From Bidens hawaiensis (taxonomy: Eukaryota; Streptophyta; Magnoliopsida; Asterales; Asteraceae), in NCBI GenBank assembly GCA_021521415.1, contig JAIQDT010000677.1, positions 310,001 to 374,000 of the forward strand: 64,000 nucleotides of DNA. The letters are read 5' to 3'. Under the pieces are notes generated by a model. That model made no database searches, was not told where the DNA came from, and saw only the letters and a list, made by a program, of their open reading frames with translations. Position numbers and translations under genes: made by a program. This document shows, one piece after another, positions 13,871 through 53,988 of the stretch. Positions within the stretch are counted from its first letter, which is position 1. The number at the start of each line of letters is the position of its first letter.

Positions 13871-13874
<4 letters not shown>

Positions 13875-19269: not shown

Positions 19270-19303
<34 letters not shown>

Positions 19304-29182: not shown

Positions 29183-29831
29183 TTTATACAATCGTTAAAA
29201 ATTTCTTGCCAATGACTTCTTTTTTTTTCAATTTGTTTGAACAACGACAATTGGAGTAATAAGTAGTATTTTTGTCTCTTTTTAAATGTGGTGGTGTAGA
29301 GTTGTATGGTATGGGTTGTACCCAGAAAACTTGAAACTTATCAAAAACACAAGATAAAATATCTAAATCACGTATCTAACATTATATTGATTAGACATTC
29401 TTTAACAAATATGTTTTAATACTTTCTATGAATATTTTTAAAAGTAGTAATTGTAGTGTGATATACATTTGATGTTATTACAAGACAATTTTACACGTAT
29501 AGATGTTATTGATGGTCACGCGTATGCTTGTTTTACTCGTCTAAATCCTTAATATTATCATTCAGTACACGAATAATAACAATACACATGTGAATGATAA
29601 TACATACATGTATGTATGTATACGTGATATGGTGTTGTATATTACATTAGTTTAACTGAAAAGATTTTTGCTAAAAGAAAAGTTCACATACATGAATAAA
29701 ATTATATACCAGCACTACGTGACTAAACAAATAAGTTAATCTAACTCTGAAAGCATGCCGAACTTGAAGGACGATCTACCTACATCTGCTCTCATCTTCT
29801 ACCTTTTCATTGAATACTCTCTCTCTCTCTC

Positions 29832-30093
29832 TTTCATATCATCGTTTTTCACCGCCAATGTAGGCATGCCATCCGCCGAAAGTCGTTTCTCTCCTATACA
29901 GCCTTTCGAGAGGGCGATTACAAAGTAGGTCTCGGACAGCCTCCAAGTAACCTATAATTCTCTCTCTCTTTCATATCATCGTTTTTCACCGCCAATGTAG
30001 GCATGCCATCCGCCCAAAGTCGTTTCTCTCCTATACAGCCCTTCGAGAGGGCGATTACAAAGTAGGTCTCGGACAGCCTCCAAGTAACCTATC
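29832..30093. repeat. 137-bp tandem duplication (left arm)
   Basis: Two copies begin 'tttcatatcatcgtttttca' at 29832 and 29969 and end 'ctccaagtaacctat'. The mirror copy is at 52600-52858, so the tandem event preceded the large inversion. Confidence 0.9.
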
Positions 30094-31057
30094 ATGATTT
30101 CCATTTAGATTTCCATTTATTTTTTATTCATTTTAAACTATAATTTAGTACACCAAAAAGAGAGCGTATTGATTGGTTGAGAGACAAAAGGACAAAACAA
30201 AATCACAAGGATTCACACAAGCAAACCCGCTAACTGCACGTTCCACTTTTTGATTCCTCTTTTGACCCGTTAAATTCCGACACGTAAAAAACCGTCCGAT
30301 GACATCTTTCACCACGTGGCCGGTTCACCTGCTTTGCTTTAATATTCCCAGTGCCCCCCCCCCCCCACCAAGATCTTCCACAACACTTTTAGTACTACTC
30401 CTCCAACTACTCGCCTTTCGCCACGTATATACCCTTTTTTCGACCAATGATGTGATTAAACAAAACTTTCCATTTTAAAATAATATAAAAAAAGGTCTAC
30501 TTTTGATGCGTGTAAAAAATCTAAACCGATGACTTGAGGACAGGTCTCATCACACAACTTATGGTATAGTCTTGGGGTATATGAGATTAAAATTTTGCCG
30601 TTTCTGGTTAGACCGCAAATGATAACAATTGCAGAAACCAAACTTAGACGGGCCGGTCATCTTCATCGGTTCGTTGCAATATAATGTGTTGTGTGACAAT
30701 TTAGATGTAACGTGTCTATTTGGTAGTTCAGTCTTTCATGACCACACCTAGGTCATGTAGATAACATTCATTTTCTTAGTAAATTTTATACGTATTCACT
30801 CAACAAATGATCATATCATTCATATATTTACATGAGTTGTTCACGGCTCTAAAAGCTTTTATACTGATCTAGGCTACATGTATATCATTCTTAATCATTA
30901 TTTTGCAAATAATGCATTAGACTAGTCATGTTTTTAATGATATTTACTGTAATCTAAAAATTATTTGTATGTAATAAATATTTAACTCTACACACACCAC
31001 CAAATACACACACACACATACAATATTAGAAAGCTAGCTAATAGAGTAAAAATGTCC

Positions 31058-31215
31058 TTAAGGGAACATCCGGGTGGTAAAGTGGTGCGCTTTCCAATCA
31101 ATTGGTTGTGGTTTGAAATCCCACGGAGTGCATATGTAGTAATTTTAAGAGTATAGTTGATTGTAGGGTTGAGTGTGTGTTCTTCGATTAAAAAGCTAAT
31201 CGAGAAAATTGTGTG
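31058..31215 (+). mobile_element. tRNA-derived SINE (left arm)
   Basis: Pol III box A TGGTAAAGTGG at 31075-31085 and box B GGTTTGAAATCCC at 31110-31122 (one extra A versus consensus) in a tRNA-like head. The body ends near a GT/GC simple repeat. Length about 160 bp; ends not precisely defined. Confidence 0.65.
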
Positions 31216-33220
31216 TGCGCGCACACACACACACAAATCAATCATCATTTTATCAATTTTAAAAGGTTTTAAAATGCATGTAAATGGTTGAAATGCAATG
31301 TTTATTCATATCTTATAATATTCTAAATAAATATACAAAAAAAGTCCGTTTTCTACAAAAACCAACATTTATATATAGGCTATACCTACACATGCGTATA
31401 TAAACGCTTAAAAAACAAAAACAACATATGAACCAATTAATTTAATGGTTTTTTTATGTATATAACATAAACTTTTGTATGAAAGATGTCTCACCCTACT
31501 TTTTCGTACAATAGTGTAATTTTTCAAAAAATTATATGCATTTAGTTCGGCGCATTCAAAGTACTGTTCAAGATCCTCCGGATCACCCATGTTATTTGTT
31601 CATATACATAAGTAAATTACGATAATCAACCCTGTGGTATGTAAAAATTCACCTTTGGTATAGCTAAGTGAATAACAGGAATTACATACTTAAGAAAGAA
31701 ATATATAAATTTTTTACATACGATAGAACACCAATTTACCCTTTTTAATATGATTCGAAACCGAACATTTTTTTCAATTATTTCTTCAAAGGGTTTGGTG
31801 CGTGGAGGACGTAAACCAACTTTAATTATCATACATGTGGTCGACGTAACCGGGCTTCTATTTATGTTACATGAATGACTTTAGAATTAAAGAATGTTTT
31901 ACCAAGAGAGAAACTTGTTATATTTGGGCGATAACAAACTAAAGGTTAAAACACGTAACGATTATAATAGAGATAGTTCCTTTTGGCAATATGGGCCCTA
32001 TGTACGGCATTTTTGTTCTATAATTTAACAAAAGTTATCGGACTAAGGCATGATAAAATTACTATTTATCAACTTGACCAATCATCAATTTAGAATGCAT
32101 GAATTCATGGAAAATTTTGTGTTTATGTAACAAGTTTTAGTGGTTAAAAAAATCTTATTTAACTAGCGATGTAAACAAGTCAAATTTCAATTATCTATTT
32201 GAAATCAACTTACTAAAGTTTTGAATTAACATGAGCTTAAAAGAGCACCTACTATATTGGGTCTCCTTTGATAAATGAACTAAGTAAGAGTTATAAATCG
32301 AGCTTGATTAGCTAATTAGCCTATTACTAATCCAAATCTCAAATTCGATCGTAAAATCATATATCACACCAATTGGGTACCCGATACTACCGTCACGTTT
32401 GCAAGTTGTCTAATGGGTATCAGTTATACCATTTTATGTTCTTATATGGTTAAAAGTTAGACGTTAATGTTCACATTACAAAAAAACTTATTTGAATTAC
32501 ACATCTAAAAAACTTGTACTTTAATAATTTAAGCTTTTAACAAGTTTAAGATATCATTTATTTTATTTGTTTATACAATATATTAATATATTCGATTTTA
32601 ATGTGAACTAGTGGCAACAATAGTTAACATCATACTCATCACCACCCCACGAATTGTTTTATATCCCATAACTAGTTTCATATTCAAATATCTATCTCGT
32701 TATTATTTCAAAATTAAGGTTTCATGTAAGATTCAAGTGTTTATGGTATCTCTAAGAAATTTCATAAGATAATGGTGTACCTAGGTTGTAGAGATGGGGT
32801 GCGAGTGTAGCCAATGATCTTTTTTAGTATATATACTATTTAATCCCCATAAATCTCCAAGAATTTTTTACATGAAACTTTAAAATCAATCATGAAATAT
32901 TGACGTTGGCTCTTAGGAAAAAGAATTTATCATTTTAGAACTATACAAGTATGATTATATAAGCTTATTATAAACCAATTAACAAATATAAATCAACTAA
33001 GTCCATTTTATACAATTAAACAAATGAGCCAATTTTAAACTAAACTTGTTAACCATTAAATCAAAATACCTAGTAATTAACAGTCTTAAACAATTAAATC
33101 TATATACCATATTACTCACTTATTTTTAACAATGAATAAGTTAACCTACTAAAAAAGTGACATTTATTAGCCGCTCCCACCCTTAAGTAGACTTTATAAA
33201 CTAAAAACTCAATCGATAAT

Positions 33221-33460
33221 TTGCCAAGACGTGTAACATAACACCCTAAACCTGGGGAAGATACATAGGTTGAGTTTACATATGCAATATAGTTTTAAAC
33301 TTTAACAATTATTACTATATATAAAGAAGAACTTTGGTGTTGCCAAGACGTGTAACATAACACCCTAAACCTGGGGAAGTTACATAGGTTGAGTTTACAT
33401 ATGTAATATAGTTTTTAAACTTTAACAATTATTACTATATGTAAATAAGAACTTTGGTGT
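33221..33460. repeat. 119-bp tandem duplication (left arm)
   Basis: Copies begin 'ttgccaagacgtgtaaca' at 33221 and 33340. The mirror copy is at 49207-49455. Confidence 0.9.
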
Positions 33461-34656
33461 TGCTAGTGGTCTATTGAGTTACTTGACGGCACTGTATTGG
33501 TTAGTGAAATTTGTTTAATTAGTTTAGTTATCATAATAAACGTAATAAAAACGACCATGCACTTTTTTAGTACAGTTATCATAATAAACGTAATGGAAAC
33601 CGACCAAACGTCAACTTTTTTTGTTTCGTCCGATACCATATTAAACCGACCGAGTTCGCGCAGAATATCGGTCTTATTTAAAGCCCACGGCCGACAACGC
33701 TCGGGTTTTACCAATGCGCAAGTTTACCGACCCCCCCCCCAATTGGTCGTTGGTCCACCTCAATTTTTAAAACAATTTTGTTTTAAAGTTTCGATACCGT
33801 AACGTACGTAAAAACCGACCGAATTTGTGTCAAGTTACCGCCTCAATTCTCGGGTCCGACAACGCTTGAGTTTTACCACCGCCCAGGTTTGCCAACCAAA
33901 TAAACATCGTCTTAAATATTTTATTTTCTTATATGTTAATGTTTTTATATGTTAAATTGATGAATTAAATTTTTGGGTTTTAACGCTCAAATTTTACCAA
34001 TGGTGTCTAAATCGTAACGAACGCAGCCAGTACTGGCTGAATTCGTATCAACTCATCGTCGTAATTCTTAGGTTTTACCAACGCCCGGGTTTCAACGATG
34101 GAGTTTTGCCAACTGCCCCAACGTAACGCGCTAGGTAGAAAAACTACTAAAACCAATGGAAATACTTCGTTACAAAGACTTGCACATCGAATGGGTCATA
34201 GATCTTTAACTAAAATGGCAAAACTAAACATAAACTGAATGCCAGCCTTGGAGGGTAGCCTTGACCAAAATCTGACAAGTAAACCCTTTTAACTGTATAA
34301 ATACATTTTACCGAATAGAAACTGAAAACCTAGAGGAGACACAGGCGACTATAGAAGCCTATAGACAAACTTTGGAGACTGTAACCCCCCCCCCCCCCTA
34401 GCATCAATCAACGCTAGGAAGCTGGAGAGTCAATGATCTAATCATTTGGTTGCGTGAGAGGCGAGAGCTATGTTAAACAATTTAATCCTTTGCCATCCAA
34501 GCAAACCAAACATTTATACACTTTTTTTTTCTTAGTCTTTGGTGTTTTGAACTTTAGAATGGTTGGCTAACAGCTTTTGTAAATGGTTTGGCGTGTTGAA
34601 TTTTAAGTGTTATGATTTTGGATCTTTCATTGTGATAGTCTTATTTAAAAACTTTA

Positions 34657-35106
34657 GAGTGAACTGTGGTTTTCGTTTATGTGATTTGTCCAAATATACG
34701 GTTTTAGTCCAATAGTTTCAAATTTGCGATTTTCGTCCTTGTGATTTCATTTCACTTACAATTAAACCCGAATTCATTAACCTCGTTAAGTATGGTCGTT
34801 AAACCCATCAACGTATCCCTCATGTGAGGGGCATTTTTCTCCTTTTTCTCCCCAAATAAACCCTAGTCGTAATTCGCAAGCCCCCTCACGTGAGGGGCTG
34901 AGGTGCATTTGGGGGGGGGAGGACAAAACTGCCCCTCACGTGAAGGGTGCGCTAATGGGTTTAACGACCAAACTTAACGGGGTTAATGAATTCGGGTTTA
35001 ATTGCAAGTGAAATGAAACCACAGGGACGAAAATCGCAAATTTGAAACTATTGGACTAAAACCGTATATTTGGACAAACCACAGAGACGAAAACCGCTGT
35101 TTAATC
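34657..35106. mobile_element. Mutator-type MITE with 9-bp target duplication (left arm)
   Basis: Terminal inverted repeats of about 190 bp begin GAGTGAACTGTGGTTTTCG and (reverse) GATTAAACAGCGGTTTTCG. The flanks are both AAAACTTTA (34648-34656, 35107-35115). The interior contains cacgtgagggg palindromes and a G run. No coding capacity. Confidence 0.85.
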
Positions 35107-35994
35107 AAAACTTTATTATCTTGATTTTGTGAAGTATTCGGTTGCATGCTATATATTGATCTTTTGGCTTGTTTGTGTGGTTGAATTTGATCTTTCGATG
35201 ATAATTTTACAAATCACCGAGTCAGATTCAGATTTATTCTTTTCTAGGTTATATATGGGGCTGAAAACCTTAAAAGAAGATAAAAAAAAAATAATGATTG
35301 GTTGGTTTTGTATATGAACTTAACTACAATTTAAAAAATAAAATAAAAAATAGAATTTCATTACTAATTCAATGTTCAAAGTATTAAAAATCAAATGCGA
35401 GTTGGCAAGTTTACGTGAGTTAATGAGTGTATGCTTTTATTTGTGTTAAAAATGATTTTGTCTGTTTCTTTTTTTATTTTATACATTACAATATGCGGGC
35501 TTTACTGTTCTTTAACCGGGTCACAGTAACCTCCAGAGCTAGCTTTTAAAATTTTTATAGACTTATCATCAATTTTGTTGAAATGTGATTTCAGTTGACA
35601 GGGAGAAGAGAACGAGAAAGAGGTTTAATGGTGAGGACGATTTCAATTTTGTTGTAATATGTATGTAGTTTCGTAGGAGGCTTTAAAAATTGTTAAAGCT
35701 GAGCAGAGAAACGTGTTACTTTTATAGCATGTGGGACAACCATAACATATTTAATATATATTAAAATTTAAATTACTTTTTATTATTTGGTTTTTAAATC
35801 TAATTCGACTAATCTGAAATCTACCTTAATCACAAATACGCTCACGTACCCAACATAACACACATGTCCATAATACTAGTTTGCTAATAAGATATTTTTT
35901 AAAGTATTCACACCATATCCTCTATATTTATGCGAGTAACTTCTCTATATTGCATGGATATGGTTGTAAGTGGTTGTGTAGAGATAGTGTTGAG

Positions 35995-36811
35995 TAGGGG
36001 TGTGCAGAATTAGGGTCGGGTTGAAAAGACCCGAAAAACCAGCCCGAAAAAACTCGGTATCGGACCGACCCGAATTTTATACATATGGCTTCGGTCCTTA
36101 GTTACTGTTCCAGTCGATTTCGGGTCGGGTTCGGGGATCTGCCCCTGAAGACCCTTACAAATCCGAATAACCGATACATGAAAAAATTAGTACGCAATAA
36201 ACTAAAATAACACGCATGTGTGTAGCTGCTTCTAATTGAATGCAATACAGTTCAATCTTCTAATAAACTGCCATTGTTAATCTGCTATCGCTTCAGTTCT
36301 CGTGGATTTTGGTTCTCCATCTTCACTCTGTCAAACTGTTACTAGTTCATGGAGACATTTTATCGAACACTTGGAGGGCATACTGAATCAAACTGTAAAT
36401 TAAGTTTATATTGATGAATGAAGCACCAAAAATGAACAATTATATCACACTCTTCAATATAATCTGAAGATTCATGGATCTAATTGAACATATACTTCAA
36501 AATAACAACGAAATTGCTAAACGATCACAAAGAAAATTGCAATAAAAACGTGAAAAATTACCCGTTTGATTGTGGATTGCTCTTTTAGGTTCAAATGATG
36601 CATTTGAAACGCATCCACATCAATTTATGCAGTTCAGACCCTATTATTTTCTGCAATTCAGATCTACAGGAGCGGAAATTTCCGGTCTCGGTTCAATTGC
36701 AGAAAACCGATGAACCGACCATTGCTAGGACCGAACCTGATTGTCCCTTAGAGGTTCAGTTTTCGGTCTTCATAATCCACACATGTCGGTTATTGGTTCG
36801 GGTCAGGTTTC
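35995..36811. mobile_element. hAT-like element fragment (left arm)
   Basis: Starts TAGGGGTGTGCAG and is rich in GGGTCGGGTT / AACCCGACCC subterminal motifs. It runs up to the Cassandra LTR at 36812; its other end is not seen. Confidence 0.6.
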
Positions 36812-37067
36812 TGTAACAACCCAGCTACCACCGCACCATAATATTGTCCGCTTTGGCCGGGACGTACCACCATCGCCTCACGGATTTGCTTTTGGTTGCC
36901 CAGGTGGTCACCCATCCTCATACTTCTCCCACCTGAGCACGCTTAACTGTGGAATTCTCCAGTAATCCACTACCATTAAGCGCCCAAAACGCGTTATGAT
37001 GGGGAAGGTATCCACCTCCTTATAAAGAAGGCTTAGTTCTCCTTCCCAATAGATGTGGGATGTCACA
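36812..37067 (-). mobile_element. Cassandra-type LTR with 5S rRNA-like core (left arm)
   Basis: 256 bp, minus strand TGTGACATCCCACATC ... GGGTTGTTACA. The middle carries 5S rRNA-like sequence with the internal Pol III promoter motifs AGTTAAGCGTGCT and GGATGGGTGACC. LTRs carrying 5S rRNA are the hallmark of Cassandra TRIM retrotransposons (established knowledge). The mirror copy is at 45596-45851. Confidence 0.85.
36883..36998 (-). other. 5S rRNA-derived segment within the LTR (left arm)
   Basis: Diverged 5S-like block; strongest over the stretch with AGTTAAGCGTGCT and GGATGGGTGACCACCTGGG. Not a genuine ribosomal gene because it is embedded in the LTR and altered in its 5' half. Confidence 0.75.
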
Positions 37068-37132
37068 ATCCACCCCCCTTAGGGTCCAGCGTCCTCGCTG
37101 GCACCACCGGTCCGGCCCTTGCTTTGATACCA
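37068..37132 (-). other. Cassandra internal domain: PBS to PPT, 65 bp (left arm)
   Basis: Read on the minus strand: TGGTATCAAAGC primer-binding site (37132-37121), then a short spacer with ccagcgaggacgctgg, then the purine tract aaggggggtgga just before the LTR. The order PBS-PPT-LTR identifies this Cassandra LTR as the 3' LTR. Confidence 0.75.
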
Positions 37133-37559
37133 CGGGGCCCCGTTACCGGTAACCCTACTTTAACGTCGGATTTACTCATAAACACAGTTCTTACAAATCA
37201 GAGTTTATTAAAACTTTCGCTGAATATAAAACTTTAACCGTTTATTACAAAACATTTAATCTTTTCTTTAGAACCATAACATGAACATCATATTTTAAAC
37301 ATCGTTTCTTCCATCTTCGGATGCCAGCCGTTCAATCCGTGCCATGTGTCATCCTCATGCCTTCTCGATAAACATATATACCTGCGTGCATACTAAAAGT
37401 CAGCTACGCAGAGTGAGTTCTAATTAATCAGGCGACATACAATACATACACATATCTTACATACATATATATCTTGACCTTGTATAAATATCCATAAGAG
37501 GACGTCACATAATATCTATTAAAAGAACTATTACTATTATCCTACTATCTGTATTCTCC

Positions 37560-37800
37560 ATAGAAGGACACTCTATATATATATATTCTTCATAGAAGGA
37601 GCATCATATATACTTCCATAGAAGGAACACTATGTTTTCCATTAAAGGAACACTACGCTTTCCATCAAAGGAACATTGGGCTTTCCATTAAAGGAACACT
37701 ATGCTTTCCATCGAAGGAACACGGGGCTTTCCATTAAAGGAACACGAGGCTTTCCATTAATGGAACACTATAATTTCCGTTTAAGCAACACTCTATATAT
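37560..37800. repeat. TTCCATTAAAGGAACAC tandem repeat (left arm LTR)
   Basis: About ten copies of a 22-23-bp unit, at the place where the related LTR at 13871 carries a different 36-bp repeat. Mirror at about 44870-45100. Confidence 0.85.
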
Positions 37801-38429
37801 TATCCATATAGGGAACTCTATATATAAGTTATCATTTAATATCCATATAAGGAGACCATCATCATTATTCTTGGCAATACATGCAATATCCGAAGATCGT
37901 TCACGTATCGACAAGTAATCATCCCTGCATTACATACAATATCCATATGTTTATTTATAACCTAACGGTACATGCAATATCCGAAGATCGTTCACGTACC
38001 GACAAGCAATCAATCATTTCTAACACATATATCATACATGGCATACACTTACCATTTAAGTTAAGTGTATTAACTGTCACATCGAGTATGCACACAGCCC
38101 CGAAAACATAACAAGGAAGTGGGGCTAGAAACTCACCTGAACTCGGTTACTTCTTCCGTTAATGGTTACTCCTTTCTTTGGCTGAGCACGGCTAGCTGTA
38201 TAACAATTAGGCGTAATGATTACTATCACTCTTCATAACGTGTTTCTAGTTAAACTATCACCCTCAACGAACGGGGGTTCGGGGGCAGCGCCCCTGGCAG
38301 CAGGGTTCTAGGGGCGGCAGCCCCTGGAAGGGTCAAAGGGGCAGAGCTCCTGGCTGGGGTCGAGCTGCCAGGTCAGCTTGGAAAAATTTTATTTCCATTA
38401 ACTGTCTTAACACATTTTCCATTAGGATT

Positions 38430-38830
38430 TTTAATTACTATCTAACTCGTTAACTCATTTTCTATAACGAATTGAGCCTATTTCGTTGGCTAATTCGTTA
38501 TGAATTTACAGTCTAATTCGTTACAAAATCCTCCTTCATTCGCTATAACGAATGGCCTATTCGTTATCTCAATTATAACGAATTGAGTCTGATTCGCTAA
38601 CTGATTCGTTACCTTACCTTCATCTGATTCGTTACCCAGACACAAATTAATTCGTTATCTTGCAAGATCTGGTTCGCTGGTTGATTCGCTAACGAATTAG
38701 GTGGTTACCTGATCTTAACGAACTGGAGGGCTGATTCGTTAATTGGACATAACGAATTGGTGAACTAATTCGTTATCTTGCCATGACGAATTGGTTTACT
38801 AATTCGTTATCTCTTTATAACGATTTGTTC
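38430..38830. repeat. TAACGAATT short tandem repeats (left arm LTR)
   Basis: More than twenty 'attcgtta / taacgaat' motifs in both orientations. The right-arm copy (about 43835-44240) has 19 bp more at one place. Confidence 0.85.
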
Positions 38831-39060
38831 AATCTTATCCAGACTTTGGCTCATGGGGTCAAAGTCAAAATCGTCAAGAACACCCACAGTCCACCTAAGC
38901 CAGATCTGCAATTAAACCCTCAAATCTTAACGAAAAATCACGATTTAGGTGTCAACGGATTCGTCTAACCAGCGCCTACATACCCTAACCATCCAATCGT
39001 TCAAACACAGGGTTTTAAAGGGTGCGATTTGATTTAAGCATCCTACATGCTTAGACTCGA

Positions 39061-39419
39061 ACAAAAAATGGTACTTAATTAATAACAGAAAGAAGATGCC
39101 AGTTCAAGATAGCCATGTGTCACTCAAGCAAGCCCGGTAAAGGTAAAAGTGCATGATTACATGGTGCATGATAACTTTAGCTTAATTATTAAAAGAAAAA
39201 AATATGTGCAGGATAGGGATAGGATTAATTGGTTATTTGATTGATTAATTGTTTAAAAGTAGAAATTAGCACAAGTGAAATCATAAAGGGAAGTATGTAG
39301 AACCTAAGGAGTAGTGAAAATAGTTAATTACACTTAGGCACTGTCATTAACTACTTACTTTACGAATCATGTGCTAAATAATTCCTGGAGTGATGACGTT
39401 TGTGTTTTCCTTTTAGAAT
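39061..39419. other. Leader of the gag element (left arm)
   Basis: Non-coding; ends with the acceptor-like tract gtgttttccttttag immediately before the first gag ATG. Confidence 0.45.
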
Positions 39420-39998
39420 ATGATGACTGGAACACGAAGGTTTGTTGGTAAGGGAGGTCACACTGGACGTCCTTGTGGGCCACGTGTTGTCCGGGAACCT
39501 TCTGAAGAACCAATTACTACCACGAGGAAAGAGAAAAGTGAAAACCTGTAGGGACCAAGCAGCGATGAAGGGTATCAGCTGGATCATGTTGTTCAATATG
39601 CCATTTCCTATGTTGTGGCTGCTGCTGCAAAGAAATTCCGTCCTGACAAGTCTGCCGAAAGCCATGCAAGGGCCACTGAGAGGGCAGGGGAAGACGGTGA
39701 GAAAGTTGATGATAATAAGAGAGGGACGAAAGGAACCAAACGACCTGCAGATGTCGTGGAGTATGCGGAGAAGAAGACACCAAAGATGGCGGCCAAGGAA
39801 ACACGCAAGGTGTGCGGAAAAACGCACCTGGGAGAATGCAGGACTGGGTCGGACATGTGCTATCGGTGCGGAAGGAGTGGACATTACTCTCGAGAATGCC
39901 CTGATCGCCCAAAATACTTCATATGCGGTAAAACGGATCACATGGAAAGGGAGTGCAAAGGAACGAAGGCGGGAGGCGCGAAAGTGATAGTAGCATAG
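39420..39998 (+). pseudogene. Gag-like gene 1, internally deleted (left arm)
   Basis: Starts MMTGTRRFVGKGGHTGRP, paralogous to the start of gag 2 (MVGARDIVGTGGRTGRR). The frame crosses one TAG at 39549-39551 and resumes as SSDEGYQLDHVVQYAI, parallel to NNEGVQLDPVIQAAIV of gag 2. The central retrotransposon-gag domain is missing; the frame jumps to a basic linker and zinc knuckles. The first knuckle, CYRCGRSGHYSREC, is complete. The second, FICGKTDHMEREC, lacks its first Cys (Tyr-Phe instead). The product would be a small nucleic-acid-binding protein if translated, but the stop argues against it. The mirror copy looks identical. Confidence 0.75.
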
Positions 39999-40258
39999 GC
40001 CAAGGAAGACTACTGAGATGAACGCTCGATGGAGGAATAATTGCTTAGACAATAGTTTGATTTTGTTTTAAGTATGATTGCCTAAGAACTTGTTTTGTGT
40101 TAAGGTTTAAAACTTATGCTTATCTATGACGTGTAAAATTTTGAGTTTGGTTATGAATGATATTTATGTTATGATAAAATGACGTACTAGACAGTGGTGT
40201 TAAATGGTAGGATGAGCGTCGTAATAGACACCGTTTGTGTTTTTCCTTTTAGAATACG

Positions 40259-40565
40259 ATGGTTGGCGCAAGAGATATCGTTGGCACTGGAGGTCGCACT
40301 GGGCGTCGAGACAGGCCTCGTATTGTCCGACAACCCTTGGTAGAAGCAGCTTCCAACACCGGAGACGAAGGAAGCGCAGCTGGAGGAAACCCGAGCAACA
40401 ACGAAGGGGTTCAACTTGACCCTGTGATTCAAGCAGCCATTGTCCACGCCATAGCCGTTGCTGTGAAAAACCAGAATCCCGAGAAATCTGCTGGAAGCCA
40501 TGGGAGAACTGCTGAAGGGTCAAAGGGGAATGGTAGGAAAGATGTCGAAGGAGAGAATGGTGACT
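40259..40565 (+). pseudogene. Gag-like gene 2, truncated at the inversion junction (left arm)
   Basis: Same N-terminus as the right-side gag 2: codons 1-102, ending KDVEGENGD. It differs by a few substitutions (Leu for Ser at codon 28, Val for Ala at codon 67). After 40565 the sequence switches to LTR and the frame ends 12 codons later. An acceptor-like tttccttttag precedes the ATG. Confidence 0.85.
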
Positions 40566-40750
40566 ACTTAGCCTACTTAGCCTACTTGATGACGTTATAA
40601 TAGAGAAATTTCCATAATTAGTTCCATCTACTTAGCCTACTTGAACCATCTTATTATAACGTCATCATTTCTCTACCAATCCTAGTAAACTTTTCCATCG
40701 TTAACGAATAGTACATTAAATATTATTCTTGGAAATTTCGGGATGTTACA
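40566..40750 (-). mobile_element. Truncated 3' LTR of the gag element (spacer)
   Basis: Minus strand begins TGTAACATCCCGAAATTTCC at 40750, directly after a polypurine tract, and breaks off after 185 bp at the inner junction. It belongs to the same end-family as the LTR at 13871-19272. Confidence 0.75.
40588..40666. repeat. Short inverted repeat within the truncated LTR
   Basis: GATGACGTTATAATA (40588-40602) and its perfect reverse complement (40652-40666) enclose 49 bp. A cttagcctactt motif is repeated beside and within it. Possibly a tiny foldback insertion. Confidence 0.6.
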
Positions 40751-40790
40751 AGTCTTCCCTCCTTATAGAGGTTTCGTCCCCGAAACCTAG
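40751..40790 (-). other. Polypurine tract
   Basis: The minus strand reads ggggacgaaacctctataaggagggaagact-type purine-rich sequence ending at the LTR start, the usual PPT position in gypsy elements. Confidence 0.65.
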
Positions 40791-42385: not shown

Positions 42386-42645
42386 CGTATTCTAAAAGGA
42401 AAAACACAAACGGTGTCTATTACGACGCTCATCCTACCATTTAACACCACTGTCTAGTACGTCATTTTATCATAACATAAATATCATTCATAACCAAACT
42501 CAATATTTTACACGTCATAGATAAGCATAAGTTTTAAACCTTAACACAAAACAAGTTCTTAGGCAATCATACTTAAAACAAAATCAAACTATTGTCTAAG
42601 CAATTATTCCTCCATCGAGCGTTCATCTCAGTAGTCTTCCTTGGC

Positions 42646-43224
42646 CTATGCTACTATCACTTTCGCGCCTCCCGCCTTCGTTCCTTTGCACTCCCTTTCC
42701 ATGTGATCCGTTTTACCGCATATGAAGTATTTTGGGCGATCAGGGCATTCTCGAGAGTAATGTCCACTCCTTCCGCACCGATAGCACATGTCCGACCCAG
42801 TCCTGCATTCTCCCAGGTGCGTTTTTCCGCACACCTTGCGTGTTTCCTTGGCCGCCATCTTTGGTGTCTTCTTCTCCGCATACTCCACGACATCTGCAGG
42901 TCGTTTGGTTCCTTTCGTCCCTCTCTTATTATCATCAACTTTCTCACCGTCTTCCCCTGCCCTCTCAGTGGCCCTTGCATGGCTTTCGGCAGACTTGTCA
43001 GGACGGAATTTCTTTGCAGCAGCAGCCACAACATAGGAAATGGCATATTGAACAACATGATCCAGCTGATACCCTTCATCGCTGCTTGGTCCCTACAGGT
43101 TTTCACTTTTCTCTTTCCTCGTGGTAGTAATTGGTTCTTCAGAAGGTTCCCGGACAACACGTGGCCCACAAGGACGTCCAGTGTGACCTCCCTTACCAAC
43201 AAACCTTCGTGTTCCAGTCATCAT
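42646..43224 (-). pseudogene. Gag-like gene 1 (right arm copy)
   Basis: Mirror of 39420-39998 with the same internal TAG, the same knuckles and no amino-acid difference that I could find. Confidence 0.75.
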
Positions 43225-43583
43225 ATTCTAAAAGGAAAACACAAACGTCATCACTCCAGGAATTATTTAGCACATGATTCGTAAAGTAAGTAGTTAATGA
43301 CAGTGCCTAAGTGTAATTAACTATTTTCACTACTCCTTAGGTTCTACATACTTCCCTTTATGATTTCACTTGTGCTAATTTCTACTTTTAAACAATTAAT
43401 CAATCAAATAACCAATTAATCCTATCCCTATCCTGCACATATTTTTTTCTTTTAATAATTAAGCTAAAGTTATCATGCACCATGTAATCATGCACTTTTA
43501 CCTTTACCGGGCTTGCTTGAGTGACACATGGCTATCTTGAACTGGCATCTTCTTTCTGTTATTAATTAAGTACCATTTTTTGT

Positions 43584-45530
43584 TCGAGTCTAAGCATGTA
43601 GGATGCTTAAATCAAATCGCACCCTTTAAAACCCTGTGTTTGAACGATTGGATGGTTAGGGTATGTAGGCGCTGGTTAGACGAATCCGTTGACACCTAAA
43701 TCGTGATTTTTCGTTAAGATTTGAGGGTTTAATTGCAGATCTGGCTTAGGTGGACTGTGGGTGTTCTTGACGATTTTGACTTTGACCCCATGAGCCAAAG
43801 TCTGGATAAGATTGAACAAATCGTTATAAAGAGATAACGAATTAGTAAACCAATTCGTCATGGCAAGATAACGAATTAGTTCACCAATTCGTTATGTCCA
43901 ATTAACGAATCAGCCCTCCAGTTCGTTAAGATCAGGTAACGAATCAAGTGATTCGTTACCACCTAATTCGTTAGCGAATCAACCAGCGAACCAGATCTTG
44001 CAAGATAACGAATTAATTTGTGTCTGGGTAACGAATCAGATGAAGGTAAGGTAACGAATCAGTTAGCGAATCAGACTCAATTCGTTATAATTGAGATAAC
44101 GAATAGGCCATTCGTTATAGCGAATGAAGGAGGATTTTGTAACGAATTAGACTGTAAATTCATAACGAATTAGCCAACGAAATAGGCTCAATTCGTTATA
44201 GAAAATGAGTTAACGAGTTAGATAGTAATTAAAAATCCTAATGGAAAATGTGTTAAGACAGTTAATGGAAATAAAATTTTTCCAAGCTGACCTGGCAGCT
44301 CGACCCCAGCCAGGAGCTCTGCCCCTTTGACCCTTCCAGGGGCTGCCGCCCCTAGAACCTTGCTGTCAGGGGCGCTGCCCCCGAACCCTCGTTCGTTGAG
44401 GGTGATAGTTTAACTAGAAACACGTTATGAAGAGTGATAGTAATCATTACGCCTAATTGTTATACAGCTAGCCGTGCTCAGCCAAAGAAAGGAGTAACCA
44501 TTAACGGAAGAAGTAACCGAGTTCAGGTGAGTTTCTAGCCCCACTTCCTTGTTATGTTTTCGGGGCTGTGTGCATACTCGATGTGACAGTTAATACACTT
44601 AACTTAAATGGTAAGTGTATGCCATGTATGATATATGTGTTAGAAATGATTGATTTCTTGTCGGTACGTGAACGATCTTCGGATATTGCATGTACCGTTA
44701 GGTTATAAATAAACATATGGATATTGTATGTAATGCAGGGATGATTACTTGTCGATACGTGAACGATCTTCGGATATTGCATGTATTGCCAAGAATAATG
44801 ATGATTGTCTCCTTATATGGATATTAAATGATAACATATATATAGAGTTCCCTATATGGATAATATATAGAGTGTTGCTTAAATGGAAATTATAGTGTTC
44901 CATTAATGGAAAGCCTCGTGTTCCTTTAATGGAAAGCCCCGTGTTCCTTCGATGGAAAGCATAGTGTTCCTTTAATGGAAAGCCCAATGTTCCTTTGATG
45001 GAAAGCGTAGTGTTCCTTTAATGGAAAACATAGTGTTCCTTCTATGGAAGTATATAGGATGCTCCTTCTATGAAGAATATATATATATATAGTGTCCTTC
45101 TATGGAGAATACAGATAGTAGGATAATAGTAATAGTTCTTTTAATAGATATTATGTGACGTCCTCTTATGGATATTTATACAAGGTCAAGATATATATGT
45201 ATGTAAGATATGTGTATGTATTGTATGTCGCCTGATTAATTAGAACTCACTCAGCGTAGCTGACTTTTAGTATGCACGCAGGTATATATGTTTATCGAGA
45301 AGGCATGAGGATGACACATGGCACGGATTGAACGGCTGGCATCCGAAGATGGAAGAAACGATGTTTAAAATATGATGTTCATGTTATGGTTCTAAAGAAA
45401 AGATTAAATGTTTTGTAATAAACGGTTAAAGTTTTATATTCAGCGAAAGTTTTAATAAACTCTGATTTGTAAGAACTGTGTTTATGAGTAAATCCGACGT
45501 TAAAGTAGGGTTACCGGTAACGGGGCCCCG
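43584..45530 (+). mobile_element. Truncated long LTR fused to the Cassandra PBS (right arm)
   Basis: Mirror of 37133-39060. Plus-strand order is LTR remnant, CGGGGCCCCG, then PBS at 45531. It contains the TAACGAATT repeats (about 43835-44240) and the GGAAAGC...GTGTTCC repeats (about 44870-45100). Confidence 0.6.
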
Positions 45531-45595
45531 TGGTATCAAAGCAAGGGCCGGACCGGTGGTGCCAGCGAGGACGCTGGACCCTAAGGGGGGTGGAT
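45531..45595 (+). other. Cassandra PBS-PPT internal domain (right arm)
   Basis: TGGTATCAAAGC at 45531, purine tract at 45583-45594, total 65 bp; mirror of 37068-37132. Confidence 0.75.
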
Positions 45596-45851
45596 TGTGA
45601 CATCCCACATCTATTGGGAAGGAGAACTAAGCCTTCTTTATAAGGAGGTGGATACCTTCCCCATCATAACGCGTTTTGGGCGCTTAATGGTAGTGGATTA
45701 CTGGAGAATTCCACAGTTAAGCGTGCTCAGGTGGGAGAAGTATGAGGATGGGTGACCACCTGGGCAACCAAAAGCAAATCCGTGAGGCGATGGTGGTACG
45801 TCCCGGCCAAAGCGGACAATATTATGGTGCGGTGGTAGCTGGGTTGTTACA
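45596..45851 (+). mobile_element. Cassandra-type LTR with 5S-like core (right arm)
   Basis: TGTGACATCCCACATC ... GCTGGGTTGTTACA, 256 bp, 5S-like part about 45665-45780. Mirror of 36812-37067. Confidence 0.85.
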
Positions 45852-46668
45852 GAAACCTGACCCGAACCAATAACCGACATGTGTGGATTATGAAGACCGA
45901 AAACTGAACCTCTAAGGGACAATCAGGTTCGGTCCTAGCAATGGTCGGTTCATCGGTTTTCTGCAATTGAACCGAGACCGGAAATTTCCGCTCCTGTAGA
46001 TCTGAATTGCAGAAAATAATAGGGTCTGAACTGCATAAATTGATGTGGATGCGTTTCAAATGCATCATTTGAACCTAAAAGAGCAATCCACAATCAAACG
46101 GGTAATTTTTCACGTTTTTATTGCAATTTTCTTTGTGATCGTTTAGCAATTTCGTTGTTATTTTGAAGTATATGTTCAATTAGATCCATGAATCTTCAGA
46201 TTATATTGAAGAGTGTGATATAATTGTTCATTTTTGGTGCTTCATTCATCAATATAAACTTAATTTACAGTTTGATTCAGTATGCCCTCCAAGTGTTCGA
46301 TAAAATGTCTCCATGAACTAGTAACAGTTTGACAGAGTGAAGATGGAGAACCAAAATCCACGAGAACTGAAGCGATAGCAGATTAACAATGGCAGTTTAT
46401 TAGAAGATTGAACTGTATTGCATTCAATTAGAAGCAGCTACACACATGCGTGTTATTTTAGTTTATTGCGTACTAATTTTTTCATGTATCGGTTATTCGG
46501 ATTTGTAAGGGTCTTCAGGGGCAGATCCCCGAACCCGACCCGAAATCGACTGGAACAGTAATTAAGGACCGAAGCCATATGTATAAAATTCGGGTCGGTC
46601 CGATACCAAGTTTTTTCGGGCTGGTTTTTCGGGTCTTTTCAACCCGACCCTAATTCTGCACACCCCTA
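45852..46668. mobile_element. hAT-like element fragment (right arm)
   Basis: Mirror of 35995-36811; ends CACCCCTA at 46668. Confidence 0.6.
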
Positions 46669-47558
46669 CTCAACACTATCTCTACACAATCACTTACAAC
46701 CATATCCATGCAATATAGAGAAGTTACTCGCATAAATATAGAGGATATGGTGTGAATACTTTAAAAAATATCTTATTAGCAAACTAGTATTATGGACATG
46801 TGTGTTATGTTGGGTACGTGAGCGTATTTGTGATTAAGGTAGATTTCAGATTAGTCGAATTAGATTTAAAAACCAAATAATAAAAAGTAATTTAAATTTT
46901 AATATATATTAAATATGTTATGGTTGTCCCACATGCTATAAAAGTAACACGTTTCTCTGCTCAGCTTTAACAATTTTTAAAGCCTCCTACGAAACTACAT
47001 ACATATTACAACAAAATTGAAATCGTCCTCACCATTAAACCTCTTTCTCGTTCTCTTCTCCCTGTCAACTGAAATCACATTTCAACAAAATTGATGATAA
47101 GTCTATAAAAATTTTAAAAGCTAGCTCTGGAGGTTACTGTGACCCGGTTAAAGAACAGTAAAGCCCGCATATTGTAATGTATAAAATAAAAAAAGAAACA
47201 GACAAAATCATTTTTAACACAAATAAAAGCATACACTCATTAACTCACGTAAACTTGCCAACTCGCATTTGATTTTTAAGACTACTTTGAACATTGAATT
47301 AGTAATGAAATTCTATTTTTTATTTTATTTTTTTAAAATGTAGTTAAGTTCATATACAAAACCAACCAATCATTATTTTTTTTATCTTCTTTTAAGGTTT
47401 TCAGCCCCATATATAACCTAGAAAAGAATAAATCTGAATCTGACTCGGTGACTTGTAAAATTATCATCGAAAGATCAAATTCAACCACACAAACAAGCCA
47501 AAAGATCAATATATAGCATGCAACCGAATACTTCACAAAATCAAGATAATAAATTTTT

Positions 47559-48014
47559 GATTAAACAGCGGTTTTCGTCCCTGTGGTTTGTCCAAATATA
47601 CGGTTTTAGTCCAATAGTTTCAAATTTGCGATTTTCGTCCCTGTGGTTTCATTTCACTTGCAATTAAACCCGAATTCATTAACCCCGTTAAGTTTGGTCG
47701 TTAAACCCATTAGCGCACCCTTCACGTGAGGGGCAGTTTTGTCCTCCCCCCCCACCCCCCAAATACACCTCAGCCCCTCACGTGAGGGGGCTTGCGAATT
47801 ACAACTAGGGTTTATTTGGGGAGAAAAAGGAGAAAAATGCCCCTCACATGAGGGATACGTTGATGGGTTTAACGACCATACTTAACGAGGTTAATGAATT
47901 CGGGTTTAATTGTAAGTGAAATGAAATCACAAGGACGAAAATCGCAAATTTGAAACTATTGGACTAAAACCGTATATTTGGACAAATCACATAAACGAAA
48001 ACCACAGTTCACTC
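47559..48014. mobile_element. Mutator-type MITE (right arm)
   Basis: Mirror of 34657-35106. Here the flanks are TAAATTTTT and TAAAGTTTT, so one target-duplication copy has a substitution. Confidence 0.8.
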
Positions 48015-49206
48015 TAAAGTTTTTAAATAAGACTATCACAATGAAAGATCCAAAATCATAACACTTAAAATTCAACACGCCAAACCATTTACAAAAGCTG
48101 TTAGCCAACCATTCTAAAGTTCAAAACACCAAAGACTAAGAAAAAAAAAGTGTATAAATGTTTGGTTTGCTTGGATGGCAAAGGATTAAATTGTTTAACA
48201 TAGCTCTCGCCTCTCACGCAACCAAATGATTAGATCATTGACTCTCCAGCTTCCTAGCGTTGATTGATGCTGGGGGGGGGGGGGGGGGGGGTTACAGTCT
48301 CCAAAGTTTGTCTATAGGCTTCTATAGTCGCCTGTGTCTCCTCTAGGTTTTCAGTTTCTATTCGGTAAAATGTATTTATACAGTTAAAAGGGTTTACTTG
48401 TCAGATTTTGGTCAAGGCTACCCTCCAAGGCTGGCATTCAGTTTATGTTTAGTTTTGCCATTTTAGTTAAAGATCTATGACCCATTCGATGTGCAAGTCT
48501 TTGTAACGAAGTATTTCCATTGGTTTTAGTAGTTTTTCTACCTAGCGCGTTACGTTGGGGCAGTTGGCAAAACTCCATCGTTGAAACCCGGGCGTTGGTA
48601 AAACCCAAGAATTACGACGATGAGTTGACACGAATTCAGCCAGTACTGGCTGCGTTCGTTACGATATAGACACCATTGGTAAAATTTGAGCGTTAAAACC
48701 CAAAAATTTAATTCATCAATTTAACATATAAAAACATTAACATATAAGAAAATAAAATATTTAAGACGATGTTTATTTGTTTGGCAAACCTGGGCGGTGG
48801 TAAAACTCAAGCGTTGTCGGACCCGAGAATTGAGGCGGTAACTTGACACAAATTCGGTCGGTTTTGATTACGTACGTTACGGTATCGAAACTTAAAAACA
48901 AAAATGTTTAAAAATTGAGGTGGACCAACGACCAATTGGGGGGGGGGGGTCGGTAAACTTGCACATTGGTAAAACCCGAGCGTTGTCGGCCGTGGGCTTT
49001 AAATAAGACCGCTATTCTGCGCGAACTCGGTCGGTTTGTTATGGTATCGGACGAAACAAAAAAAGTTGACGTTTGGTCGGTTTCCATTACGTTTATTATG
49101 ATAACTGTACTAAAAAAGTTCATGGTCGTTTTTATTACGTTTATTATGATAACTAAACTAATTAAACAAAATTCACTAACCAATACAGTGCCGTCAAGTA
49201 ACTCAA

Positions 49207-49455
49207 TAGACCACTAGCAACACCAAAGTTCTTATTTACATATAGTAATAATTGTTAAAGTTTAAAAACTATATTACATATGTAAACTCAACGTATGTAA
49301 CTTCCCCAGGTTTAGGGTGTTATGTTACACGTCTTGGCAACACCAAAGTTCTTCTTTATATATAGTAATAATTGTTAAAGTTTAAAACTATATTGCATAT
49401 GTAAACTCAACCTATGTATCTTCCCCAGGTTTAGGGTGTTATGTTACACGTCTTG
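49207..49455. repeat. 119-bp tandem duplication (right arm)
   Basis: Mirror of 33221-33460. Confidence 0.9.
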
Positions 49456-51464
49456 GCAAATTATCGATTGAGTTTTTAGTTTATAAAGTCTACTTAAGGG
49501 TGGGAGCGGCTAATAAATGTCACTTTTTTAGTAGGTTAACTTATTCATTGTTAAAAATAAGTGAGTAATATGGTATATAGATTTAATTGTTTAAGACTGT
49601 TAATTACTAGGTATTTTGATTTAATGGTTAACAAGTTTAGTTTAAAATTGGCTCATTTGTTTAATTGTATAAAATGGACTTAGTTGATTTATATTTGTTA
49701 ATTGGTTTATAATAAGCTTATATAATCATACTTGTATAGTTCTAAAATGATAAATTCTTTTTCCTAAGAGCCAACGTCAATATTTCATGATTGATTTTAA
49801 AGTTTCATGTAAAAAATTCTTGGAGATTTATGGGGATTAAATAGTATATATACTAAAAAAGATCATTGGCTACACTCGCACCCCATCTCTACAACCTAGG
49901 TACACCATTATCTTATGAAATTTCTTAGAGATACCATAAACACTTGAATCTTACATGAAACCTTAATTTTGAAATAATAACGAGATAGATATTTGAATAT
50001 GAAACTAGTTATGGGATATAAAACAATTCGTGGGGTGGTGATGAGTATGATGTTAACTATTGTTGCCACTAGTTCACATTAAAATCGAATATATTAATAT
50101 ATTGTATAAACAAATAAAATAAATGATATCTTAAACTTGTTAAAAGCTTAAATTATTAAAGTACAAGTTTTTTAGATGTGTAATTCAAATAAGTTTTTTT
50201 GTAATGTGAACATTAACGTCTAACTTTTAACCATATAAGAACATAAAATGGTATAACTGATACCCATTAGACAACTTGCAAACGTGACGGTAGTATCGGG
50301 TACCCAATTGGTGTGATATATGATTTTACGATCGAATTTGAGATTTGGATTAGTAATAGGCTAATTAGCTAATCAAGCTCGATTTATAACTCTTACTTAG
50401 TTCATTTATCAAAGGAGACCCAATATAGTAGGTGCTCTTTTAAGCTCATGTTAATTCAAAACTTTAGTAAGTTGATTTCAAATAGATAATTGAAATTTGA
50501 CTTGTTTACATCGCTAGTTAAATAAGATTTTTTTAACCACTAAAACTTGTTACATAAACACAAAATTTTCCATGAATTCATGCATTCTAAATTGATGATT
50601 GGTCAAGTTGATAAATAGTAATTTTATCATGCCTTAGTCCGATAACTTTTGTTAAATTATAGAACAAAAATGCCGTACATAGGGCCCATATTGCCAAAAG
50701 GAACTATCTCTATTATAATCGTTACGTGTTTCAACCTTTAGTTTGTTATCGCCCAAATATAACAAGTTTCTCTCTTGGTAAAACATTCTTTAATTCTAAA
50801 GTCATTCATGTAACATAAATAGAAGCCCGGTTACGTCGACCACATGTATGATAATTAAAGTTGGTTTACGTCCTCTACGCACCAAACCCTTTGAAGAAAT
50901 AATTGAAAAAAATGTTCGGTTTCGAATCATATTAAAAAGGGTAAATTGGTGTTCTATCGTATGTAAAAAATTTATATATTTCTTTCTTAAGTATGTAATT
51001 CCTGTTATTCACTTAGCTATACCAAAGGTGAATTTTTACATACCACAGGGTTGATTATCATAATTTACTTATGTATATGAACAAATAACATGGGTGATCC
51101 GGAGGATCTTGAACAGTACTTTGAATGCGCCGAACTAAATGCATATAATTTATTGAAAAATTACACTATTGTACGAAAAAGTAGGGTGAGACATCTTTCA
51201 TACAAAAGTTTATGTTATATACATAAAAAAACCATTAAATTAATTGGTTCATATGTTGTTTTTGTTTTTTAAGCGTTTATATACGCATGTGTAGGTATAG
51301 CCTATATATAAATGTTGGTTTTTGTAGAAAACGGACTTTCTTTGTATATTTATTTAGAATATTATAAGATATGAATAAACATTGCATTTCAACCATTTAC
51401 ATGCATTTTAAAACCTTTTAAAATTGATAAAATGATGATTGATTTGTGTGTGTGTGTGCGCGCA

Positions 51465-51622
51465 CACACAATTTTCTCGATTAGCTTTTTAATCGAAGAA
51501 CACACACTCAACCCTACAATCAACTATACTCTTAAAATTACTACATATGCACTCCGTGGGATTTCAAACCACAACCAATTGATTGGAAAGCGCACCACTT
51601 TACCACCCGGATGTTCCCTTAA
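51465..51622 (-). mobile_element. tRNA-derived SINE (right arm)
   Basis: Mirror of 31058-31215: box A at 51605-51595, box B at about 51570-51558. Confidence 0.65.
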
Positions 51623-52599
51623 GGACATTTTTACTCTATTAGCTAGCTTTCTAATATTGTATGTGTGTGTGTGTGTGTATTTGGTGGTGTGTGTAGAGTT
51701 AAATATTTATTACATACAAATAATTTTTAGATTACAGTAAATATCATTAAAAACATGACTAGTCTAATGCATTATTTGCAAAATAATGATTAAGAATGAT
51801 ATACATGTAGCCTAGATCAGTATAAAAGCTTTTAGAGCCGTGAACAACTCATGTAAATATATGAATGATATGATCATTTGTTGAGTGAATACGTATAAAA
51901 TTTACTAAGAAAATGAATGTTATCTACATGACCTAGGTGTGGTCATGAAAGACTGAACTACCAAATAGACACGTTACATCTAAATTGTCACACAACACAT
52001 TATATTGCAACGAACCGATGAAGATGACCGGCCCGTCTAAGTTTGGTTTCTGCAATTGTTATCATTTGCGGTCTAACCAGAAACGGCAAAATTTTAATCT
52101 CATATACCCCAAGACTATACCATAAGTTGTGTGATGAGACCTGTCCTCAAGTCATCGGTTTAGGTTTTTTACACGCATAAAAAGTAGACCTTTTTTTATA
52201 TTATTTTAAAATGGAAAGTTTTGTTTAATCACATCATTGGTCGAAAAAAGGGTATATACGTGGCGAAAGGCGAGTAGTTGGAGGAGTAGTACTAAAAGTG
52301 TTGTGGAAGATCTTGGTGGGGGGGGGGGGCCACTGGGAATATTAAAGCAAAGCAGGTGAACCGGCCACGTGGTGAAAGATGTCATCGGACGGTTTTTTAC
52401 GTGTCGGAATTTAACGGGTCAAAAGAGGAATCAAAAAGTGGAACGTGCAGTTAGCGGGTTTGCTTGTGTGAATCCTTGTGATTTTGTTTTGTCCTTTTGT
52501 CTCTCAACCAATCAATACGCTCTCTTTTTGGTGTACTAAATTATAGTTTAAAATGAATAAAAAATAAATGGAAATCTAAATGGAAATCATGATAGGTTA

Positions 52600-52858
52600 C
52601 TTGGAGGCTGTCCGAGACCTACTTTGTAATCGCCCTCTCGAAGGGCTGTATAGGAGAGAAACGACTTTGGGCGGATGGCATGCCAACATTGGCGGTGAAA
52701 AACGATGATATGAAAGAGAGAGAGAATTATATGTTACTTGGAGGCTGTCCGAGACATACTTTGTAATCGCCCTCTCGAAAGGCTGTATAGGAGAGAAACG
52801 ACTTTCGGCGGATGGCATGCCTACATTGGCGGTGAAAAACGATGATATGAAAGAGAGA
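52600..52858. repeat. 137-bp tandem duplication (right arm)
   Basis: Mirror of 29832-30093 with several substitutions. Confidence 0.9.
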
Positions 52859-53447
52859 GACAGAGTATTCAATGAAAAGGTAGAAGATGAGAGCAGAGGT
52901 AGGTAGATCGTCCTTCAAGTTCGGCATGCTTTCAGAGTTAGATTAACTTATTTGTTTAGTAACGTAGTGCTGGTATATAATTTTATTCATGTATGTGAAC
53001 TTTTCTTTTAGAAAAATCTTTTCAGTTAAACTAATGTAATATACAGCACCATATCACGTATACATACATACATGTATGTATTATCATTCACATGTGTATT
53101 GTTATTATTCGTGTACTGAATGATAATATTAAGGATTTAGACGAGTAAAACAAGCATACGCGTGACCATCAATAACATCTATACGTGTAAAATTGTCTTG
53201 TAGTAACATCAAATGTATATCACACTACAATTACTACTTTTAAAAATATTCATAGAAAGTATTAAAACATATTTGTTAAAGAATGTCTAATCAATATAAT
53301 GTTAGATACGTGATTTAGATATTTTATCTTGTGTTTTTGATAAGTTTCAAGTTTTCTGGGTACAACCCATACCATACAACTCTACAACACCACATTTAAA
53401 AAGAGACAAAAATACTACTTATTACTCCAATCGTCGTTGTTCAAACA

Positions 53448-53538
53448 AATTGAAAAAAAAAGAAGTCATTGGCAAGAAATTTTTAACGATTGTATAAACA
53501 AATTGAAAAAAAAAAAGAAGAAGTCATTGGCAGGAAAT
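53448..53538. repeat. Small tandem duplication at the outer right edge
   Basis: 'caaattgaaaaaaaaagaag' through 'ttggcaagaaat' at 53448-53480 recurs at 53499-53538. The second copy starts exactly one base after the homology with the left arm ends. Confidence 0.8.
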
Positions 53539-53575
53539 CTGGTGACTCCAAAAAATGGGAGAACGACCATATTGT

Positions 53576-53970: not shown

Positions 53971-53988
53971 TAATAACATCAACAATCA

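What the first reader, a model, noticed from the sequence alone, without database searches (positions are those of the whole stretch)
29183..53498. Giant inverted duplication: two 11.4-kb arms around a 1.5-kb spacer
The arms match in inverse order from edge to edge, including the same SINE, MITE, hAT fragment, Cassandra LTR, LTR fragment and gag genes. Divergence of about 1-2% in compared blocks argues against a single read folded on itself with perfect copies, but two haplotypes joined head-to-head could look like this. If real, it is a very large potential hairpin-RNA and small-RNA source and a site of structural instability.
Basis: seen in the sequence. Interest (0 to 1): 0.9.

Follow-up and report, generated by a model that had tools for sequence, protein, structure and literature searches.

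The report
Recent 11-kb inverted duplication between genes
In the Hawaiian plant Bidens hawaiensis, a stretch of about 11,400 bases beside a gene was copied backwards next to itself, and the joins look like a record of faulty DNA repair; it appears real but of a known kind, and whether it makes RNA hairpins is unknown.

Summary
In detail: 29183-40565 and 42079-53498 are inverted copies with 58 substitutions and 12 gap openings over 11,426 columns, 1,513 bp apart. The window lies in a 991-kb contig of the Bidens hawaiensis HiFi assembly. Two haplotypes joined head to head is unlikely: likeness ends at both outer edges, and the inner join has about 50 nt of filler readable as five chained copies of DNA within 175 bp. 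A ~49-bp back-copy of the arm's end marks the outer right join, with weaker support (25 of 1987 controls score as high). Contig C103, taken as a homeolog, gives the order left flank - arm sequence - downstream gene in one orientation, and near-allelic contig C7529 runs unbroken through the left edge. So the left arm's outer 6.7 kb is in its old place, and the right arm is a later inverted copy about 0.5 kb from an AT1G48460-like gene. Best reading: one break repaired by template switching, a known kind. No reads were available, and hairpin-RNA function is untested.

The parts
29183..40565 (+). Left arm, 11,383 bp. Its outer 6.7 kb lies in the ancestral place and orientation; its inner ~1.5 kb (39031-40565) is element interior ending abruptly at 40565
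   Evidence: Self-comparison; contig C7529 and homeolog C103 run through 29183
42079..53498 (-). Right arm, 11,420 bp, inverted copy; its outer 6.7 kb is the derived copy
   Evidence: matches to C7529 and C103 stop at 53498 and 53508, at looser settings at 53516 and 53508
40566..42078 (.). Spacer: filler, then LTR end and gag region continuous with the right arm
40564..40614 (.). Inner join filler, readable as five chained short copies: direct 40628-40642 and 40628-40644, inverted 40652-40667, 40667-40675 and 40730-40739, overlapping by 2-6 nt
   Evidence: longest shared word 17; 0 of 497 control 46-mers reach it (longest control 14). The 9- and 10-mers alone are not significant (85 of 497 controls reach 9 or more)
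40611..40750 (-). LTR start (TGTAACATCCC on the minus strand) of a gag-only LTR element, cut off at about 40611
   Evidence: Alignment to relatives; the rows L010-L019 that match here begin at 40611-40622, seven others (L003-L008, L020) at 40678-40733. Polypurine tract beside it: motif recalled
41510..42391 (-). gag reading frame running from the spacer into the right arm; the left-arm counterpart 40253-40600 is cut at 40565 and runs into filler
   Evidence: Retrotrans_gag 1.7e-15, Ty3_capsid 2.2e-13
39030..39031 (.). Junction J1 (left arm): LTR fragment joined to element interior in opposite orientation, with a repeated GATTT (by eye); same join at 43613-43614 in the right arm
   Evidence: 2 of 40 scored matches (3,464 candidates) span it, both in this locus; the other 38 break at query base 180-182
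53490..53538 (+). Outer right join: ~49-bp back-copy of the arm's own end (49 columns, 88% to the allele's arm end)
   Evidence: control: 25 of 1987 random places score as high
34657..35106 (.). Palindromic MITE-like insertion in the arm, flanked by AAAACTTTA (9 nt), absent from homeolog C103
53989..56357 (+). AT1G48460-like gene (LOC143532011); start codon as I read it 0.49 kb from the right-arm edge
   Evidence: P0121, 98% identity over 100% of my conceptual protein; the AT1G48460 name is from row P0235
10198..11828 (-). JINGUBANG-like WD40 gene, the ancestral upstream neighbour

Best explanation
This is a real, fairly recent interstitial inverted duplication. The chromosome broke, or a replication fork collapsed, inside an old LTR-element patch between a JINGUBANG-like gene and an AT1G48460-like gene. 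The free end copied short neighbouring stretches several times (the filler), then settled on the opposite-orientation strand about 1.5 kb further on. It copied back some 13 kb through the element and the flanking DNA as far as 29183, probably slipped back about 50 bp, and was joined to the downstream gene's side. Shown: the two arms, the order and orientation in a homeolog, the filler's match to nearby DNA, differences fallen in both arms since. Inferred: that C103 is a homeolog, the template-switching or Pol-theta-like chemistry, that it was one event, and that junction J1 was already there. The confidence given is for the duplication and its polarity; for this exact repair path I would say about 0.65.
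For: Arms. Left edge native: C7529 crosses 29183 at 99% over 203 columns, C103 at 74% over 200. Inner join: templated filler. Outer join: ~49-bp back-copy, 25 of 1987 controls as good. Differences in both arms: of 18 in the outer stretch covered by C7529 it equals L at 11, R at 5, 2 unreadable; C103 equals L at 9, R at 6, neither at 3, 40 of 58 unreadable. In the LTR/gag part, 12 element copies favour L at 8, R at 8, 1 tie, of 17 (one search had counted one copy twice and gave 9 and 8). Human inverted duplications have spacers of 766-70,466 bp, 2-8 nt microhomology at 13 junctions and inserts usually from within 1 kb (PMC3907307, abstract and passages).
Against: No read data, so no single molecule was seen to span the joins. 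The spacer is continuous with the right arm, not the left, so a plain fold-back of the left end does not give it without a symmetrical dicentric or a switch ahead of the break. No contig of the same subgenome lacking the duplication was found; the search meant for it (window 35400-36800) did not complete. J1 is found only in this locus among scored matches, so a two-step history is possible. The outer back-copy is only modestly beyond chance.
Confidence: 0.85

Rival explanations
1. Assembly artefact: two haplotypes, or a read folded on itself, joined head to head.
For: A hexaploid assembled at about 15x per monoploid genome and then purged of duplicates (PMC9113482, passages and sections 10 and 15); a near-allelic contig C7529 persists.
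Against: Joined haplotypes would stay alike beyond the arms; left flank and right flank share only three short matches of 29-133 columns. A folded read would have no 1.5-kb spacer and no 58 substitutions. The arms differ less from each other (18 sites over the outer 2.8 kb) than either does from C7529 (29 of 2802 and 34 of 2800 sites). The inner join carries a templated filler.
Confidence: 0.05
2. Breakage-fusion-bridge: sister chromatids fused at the inner join, and the dicentric broke and was rejoined.
For: Asymmetric spacer and microhomology-type filler fit sister fusion (PMC10622511, abstract opening and passages).
Against: Both flanking genes keep their ancestral order and orientation, so the distal piece would have had to rejoin at nearly the same place.
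Confidence: 0.2
3. The arms are long terminal inverted repeats of one mobile element (foldback or TIR type).
For: Overall shape: long inverted ends round a short centre.
Against: The left edge is not an insertion edge: C7529 and C103 run through it. No target-site duplication was seen at the outer edges, by eye. The arm holds sequence shared with C103 plus later insertions.
Confidence: 0.02
4. The inverted repeat makes long hairpin RNA that silences related elements or the neighbouring gene, as at the soybean I locus (this does not exclude the best explanation).
For: 11,223 nt lie in 57 perfect paired stretches of at least 21 nt; the soybean I locus has two 10.91-kb inverted repeats 5.87 kb apart that give siRNAs (PMC3804491, abstract and passages); arm content includes multicopy gag and LTR sequence.
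Against: No transcript or small-RNA data; among frames of 75 aa or more in the left arm only gag pieces were recognised, and only some frames were scanned; selection was not tested.
Confidence: 0.1

Closest known systems
Human inverted duplications formed by a fold-back mechanism (PMC3907307; abstract and passages seen)
   Same: Inverted arms, short single-copy spacer, microhomology and inserts from nearby DNA at the joins
   Different: Here interstitial with both flanks in place, only 11 kb, in a plant, no terminal deletion, and spacer geometry that a plain fold-back does not give
Polymerase-theta end joining with templated inserts (PMC5068794; abstract opening and passages seen)
   Same: Short inserts copied from DNA close to the break
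   Different: Here a chain of up to five copies and a 13-kb copied tract; the enzyme is not tested
Soybean I locus, CHS inverted repeat (PMC3804491; abstract and passages seen)
   Same: Two arms of about 11 kb with a few-kb spacer in a plant genome
   Different: Soybean arms hold CHS genes, are described as perfect repeats and are reported to give siRNAs; here the arms are intergenic DNA and elements, 0.5% diverged, RNA untested

Membership tests
Fold-back / template-switch inverted duplication | Two inverted arms with a short single-copy spacer | tested here: met
Fold-back / template-switch inverted duplication | Microhomology or inserts copied from nearby at the joins | tested here: met
   Inner join; outer join weaker
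Fold-back / template-switch inverted duplication | Ancestral state known, one arm derived | tested here: met
   C103 and C7529, for the outer 6.7 kb (C103) and 2.8 kb (C7529)
Fold-back inverted duplication in the strict sense | Spacer continuous with the non-inverted (original) arm | tested here: not met
   Spacer runs on into the derived right arm; reconcilable only through a symmetrical dicentric
Inverted duplication with terminal deletion (dicentric route) | Loss of the distal chromosome part | tested here: not met
   Downstream gene and the main further matches keep C103 order to window 63998
Endogenous hairpin siRNA locus (soybean I type) | Long arms of high identity | tested here: met
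Endogenous hairpin siRNA locus (soybean I type) | siRNAs produced from the arms | not testable with these tools
   No small-RNA data
Endogenous hairpin siRNA locus (soybean I type) | Arms contain a gene that is silenced in trans | tested here: inconclusive
   Frames of 75 aa or more listed; only gag pieces scanned positive; not all frames scanned
TIR / foldback transposon | Both outer edges are insertion edges with target-site duplication | tested here: not met
   Left edge continuous in C7529 and C103
Assembly artefact | Likeness extends beyond the arms, or no spacer and no divergence | tested here: not met
   read depth and spanning reads not tested

The most novel reading that the evidence does not exclude
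A young long-hairpin locus, arisen within the Hawaiian Bidens radiation and still variable between haplotypes, whose transcripts feed siRNAs against its LTR/gag family and alter expression of the AT1G48460-like gene 0.5 kb away.
Probability: 0.07. Interest if true: 0.65.

Novelty: new member of a known kind. Interest (0 to 1): 0.4.

Why it matters
The inverted duplications in the papers I saw come from patients, cancers or yeast. Here a plant example keeps its joins readable, and a homeolog in the same assembly gives the ancestral order, so the repair path can be read almost base by base. If the duplication is confined to some haplotypes or species it would be a dated marker within the Hawaiian Bidens radiation (crown age 1.32 Mya, 0.66-2.10, as quoted in PMC9113482). 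Arm divergence of 0.51% gives roughly 0.2-0.4 My at assumed rates of 1.3e-8 and 7e-9 per site and year (rates recalled), older if arm-to-arm conversion occurred.

Tried and rejected
Rejected: head-to-head haplotypes and folded read; transposon with giant terminal repeats; my first reading that the right arm was the original because gag runs unbroken from it into the spacer. The homeolog overturned that for the outer arm: only the element part is fuller on the right. I also considered that J1 arose in the same event; it is identical in both arms (100% over 351 bases) and found only in this locus among 40 scored matches, which fits either an older join or a two-step event.

Literature searches gave little of use; of one search I saw the listing only. 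One search counted one element copy twice; one search repeats it without that copy.
Full report
WHAT IS THERE. The window is C677:310001-374000 of a 3,474,515,312-base, 15,902-contig plant assembly. Its WD40 gene matches a Bidens hawaiensis protein from a contig of the same length, 991,242 bp (P0001), and size and contig number are close to the published HiCanu assembly of that hexaploid (15,904 contigs, 3,475,153,191 bases; PMC9113482, abstract, passages and sections 10 and 15). That assembly is of PacBio HiFi reads from a library averaging 16 kb; the word 'scaffold' does not occur in the main text.

NOT A MISJOIN, BY SEQUENCE. If two haplotypes had been joined head to head, likeness would run on past the arms. 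Left flank against right flank shows only three matches of 29-133 columns at 76-93% identity. The arms differ from each other at 18 sites in the outer 2.8 kb, but from the near-allelic contig C7529 at 29 of 2802 (left) and 34 of 2800 (right). In 180 kb of seven other stretches, not a random sample, the longest inverted match was 638 columns, a self-palindrome. No read evidence was available.

WHICH ARM IS OLD. Contig C103, whose main matches are 11-26% different, I take as a homeologous locus. Read on its minus strand it has in order the JINGUBANG-like gene (window 10152-12167), the arm sequence 28911-35888 in pieces, and the AT1G48460-like gene (53922-54217, 54270-56419), all in one direction, with about 0.8 kb between arm sequence and gene; some small repeat-like matches lie out of order, and C103 has about 12 kb more inside the arm sequence. 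In Tagetes erecta the proteins matching the two genes have consecutive locus tags. At the left edge C7529 (99% over 203 columns) and C103 (74% over 200 columns, with a gap close by) run through 29183; at the right edge both stop at 53498-53516. So the outer 6.7 kb of the left arm lies where it did before, and the right arm is the copy. A search with the downstream flank found the gene side again only in C103 (81% and 75% pieces) and C306 (75%) among 46 listed matches, most of them to a short repeat at 53581-53680; no near-allelic copy of that flank was listed (40 of 1,502 candidates were scored).

THE ELEMENT IN THE MIDDLE. C186 and C3298 show an element with two direct LTRs of 2.27-2.53 kb; C1529 and C72 are less complete. 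A primer site fitting tRNA-Met (recalled) lies beside the LTR. In the window copy, gag frames hit Retrotrans_gag, Ty3_capsid and zinc knuckle, and the lists of frames show no pol-like frame that I recognised; relatives were not scanned for pol. In the window, 40611-43613 is LTR end and interior, continuous with the right arm. At 43613/43614 and, mirrored, at 39030/39031, an LTR fragment meets the interior in the opposite orientation (J1). A genome search over J1 found the whole span only in the two arms; the other 38 of 40 scored matches (3,464 candidates) break at query base 180-182. J1 is therefore older than, or part of, the duplication.

THE JOINS. At the inner join the left-arm gag stops at 40565. 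The relatives L010-L019 resume at 40611-40622, and seven others only at 40678-40733. Between them the sequence can be read as five short copies: a 15-mer of 40628-40642; a 17-mer of 40628-40644; an inverted 16-mer of 40652-40667; an inverted 9-mer of 40667-40675; an inverted 10-mer of 40730-40739, each overlapping the next by 2-6 nt. None of 497 control 46-mers shares a word of 15 or more with the same target; 85 of 497 reach 9, so the two short copies prove nothing alone. At the outer right join, sequence after 53490 repeats the arm's own end (49 columns, 88% to the C7529 arm end). A control gave 25 of 1987 random places with as good a local back-copy, so this scar is suggestive, not proven.

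MECHANISM. A break or stalled fork in the LTR patch, serial short template switches, one long switch onto the opposite strand about 1.5 kb ahead, about 13 kb of copying back, and a second switch to the downstream side explains the joins other than J1 with one event. The geometry (spacer joined to the derived right arm) does not suit a simple fold-back of the left end unless a symmetrical dicentric formed. Preserved order on both sides speaks for local template switching over breakage-fusion-bridge. Enzymes are not tested.

AFTER THE EVENT. Differences have fallen in both arms (C7529 equals L at 11 and R at 5, 2 unreadable, of the 18 it covers; C103 equals L at 9, R at 6, neither at 3, 40 of 58 unreadable; 12 element copies favour L at 8, R at 8, 1 tie of 17 inner differences). 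Differences are clustered, which may mean arm-to-arm conversion or uneven mutation. The duplication seems younger than the split from C7529, but conversion between arms would give the same picture.

FUNCTION. None is shown. A transcript through both arms could pair almost throughout, and the soybean I locus is a precedent of the same size. The copied end lies about 0.49 kb from the start codon, as I read it, of an AT1G48460-like gene with a matching predicted protein of 341 residues.

Mended: number of flank matches (three), the inner polarity count, LTR end at 40750, which relatives are complete, and a control for the outer back-copy was added.

Noticed in passing
window 39030/39031 and 43613/43614: LTR fragment joined to element interior in opposite orientation with a repeated GATTT; found only in this locus among 40 scored matches. 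Origin open.
   Followed up: partly
window 34657-35106: MITE-like palindrome flanked by a 9-nt direct repeat AAAACTTTA and absent from homeolog C103, as expected for a Mutator-type insertion (type recalled).
   Followed up: partly
window 33335-34146: About 0.8-kb insertion relative to homeolog C103; not identified.
   Followed up: no
L021-L028: Gag-only LTR element family with LTRs over 2.2 kb and two gag-like frames, many copies in this genome.
   Followed up: partly
L041 1-1424: Near-allelic contig C7529 leaves the window at 32005 for other sequence, an insertion or other haplotype structure inside the arm.
   Followed up: partly
window 53571-53796: 114-bp tandem repeat next to the outer join; part of it (53581-53680) is a multicopy repeat in the genome.
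   Followed up: no
window 13866-14971 and 19099-19273: Pieces of a related LTR in the left flank.
   Followed up: no
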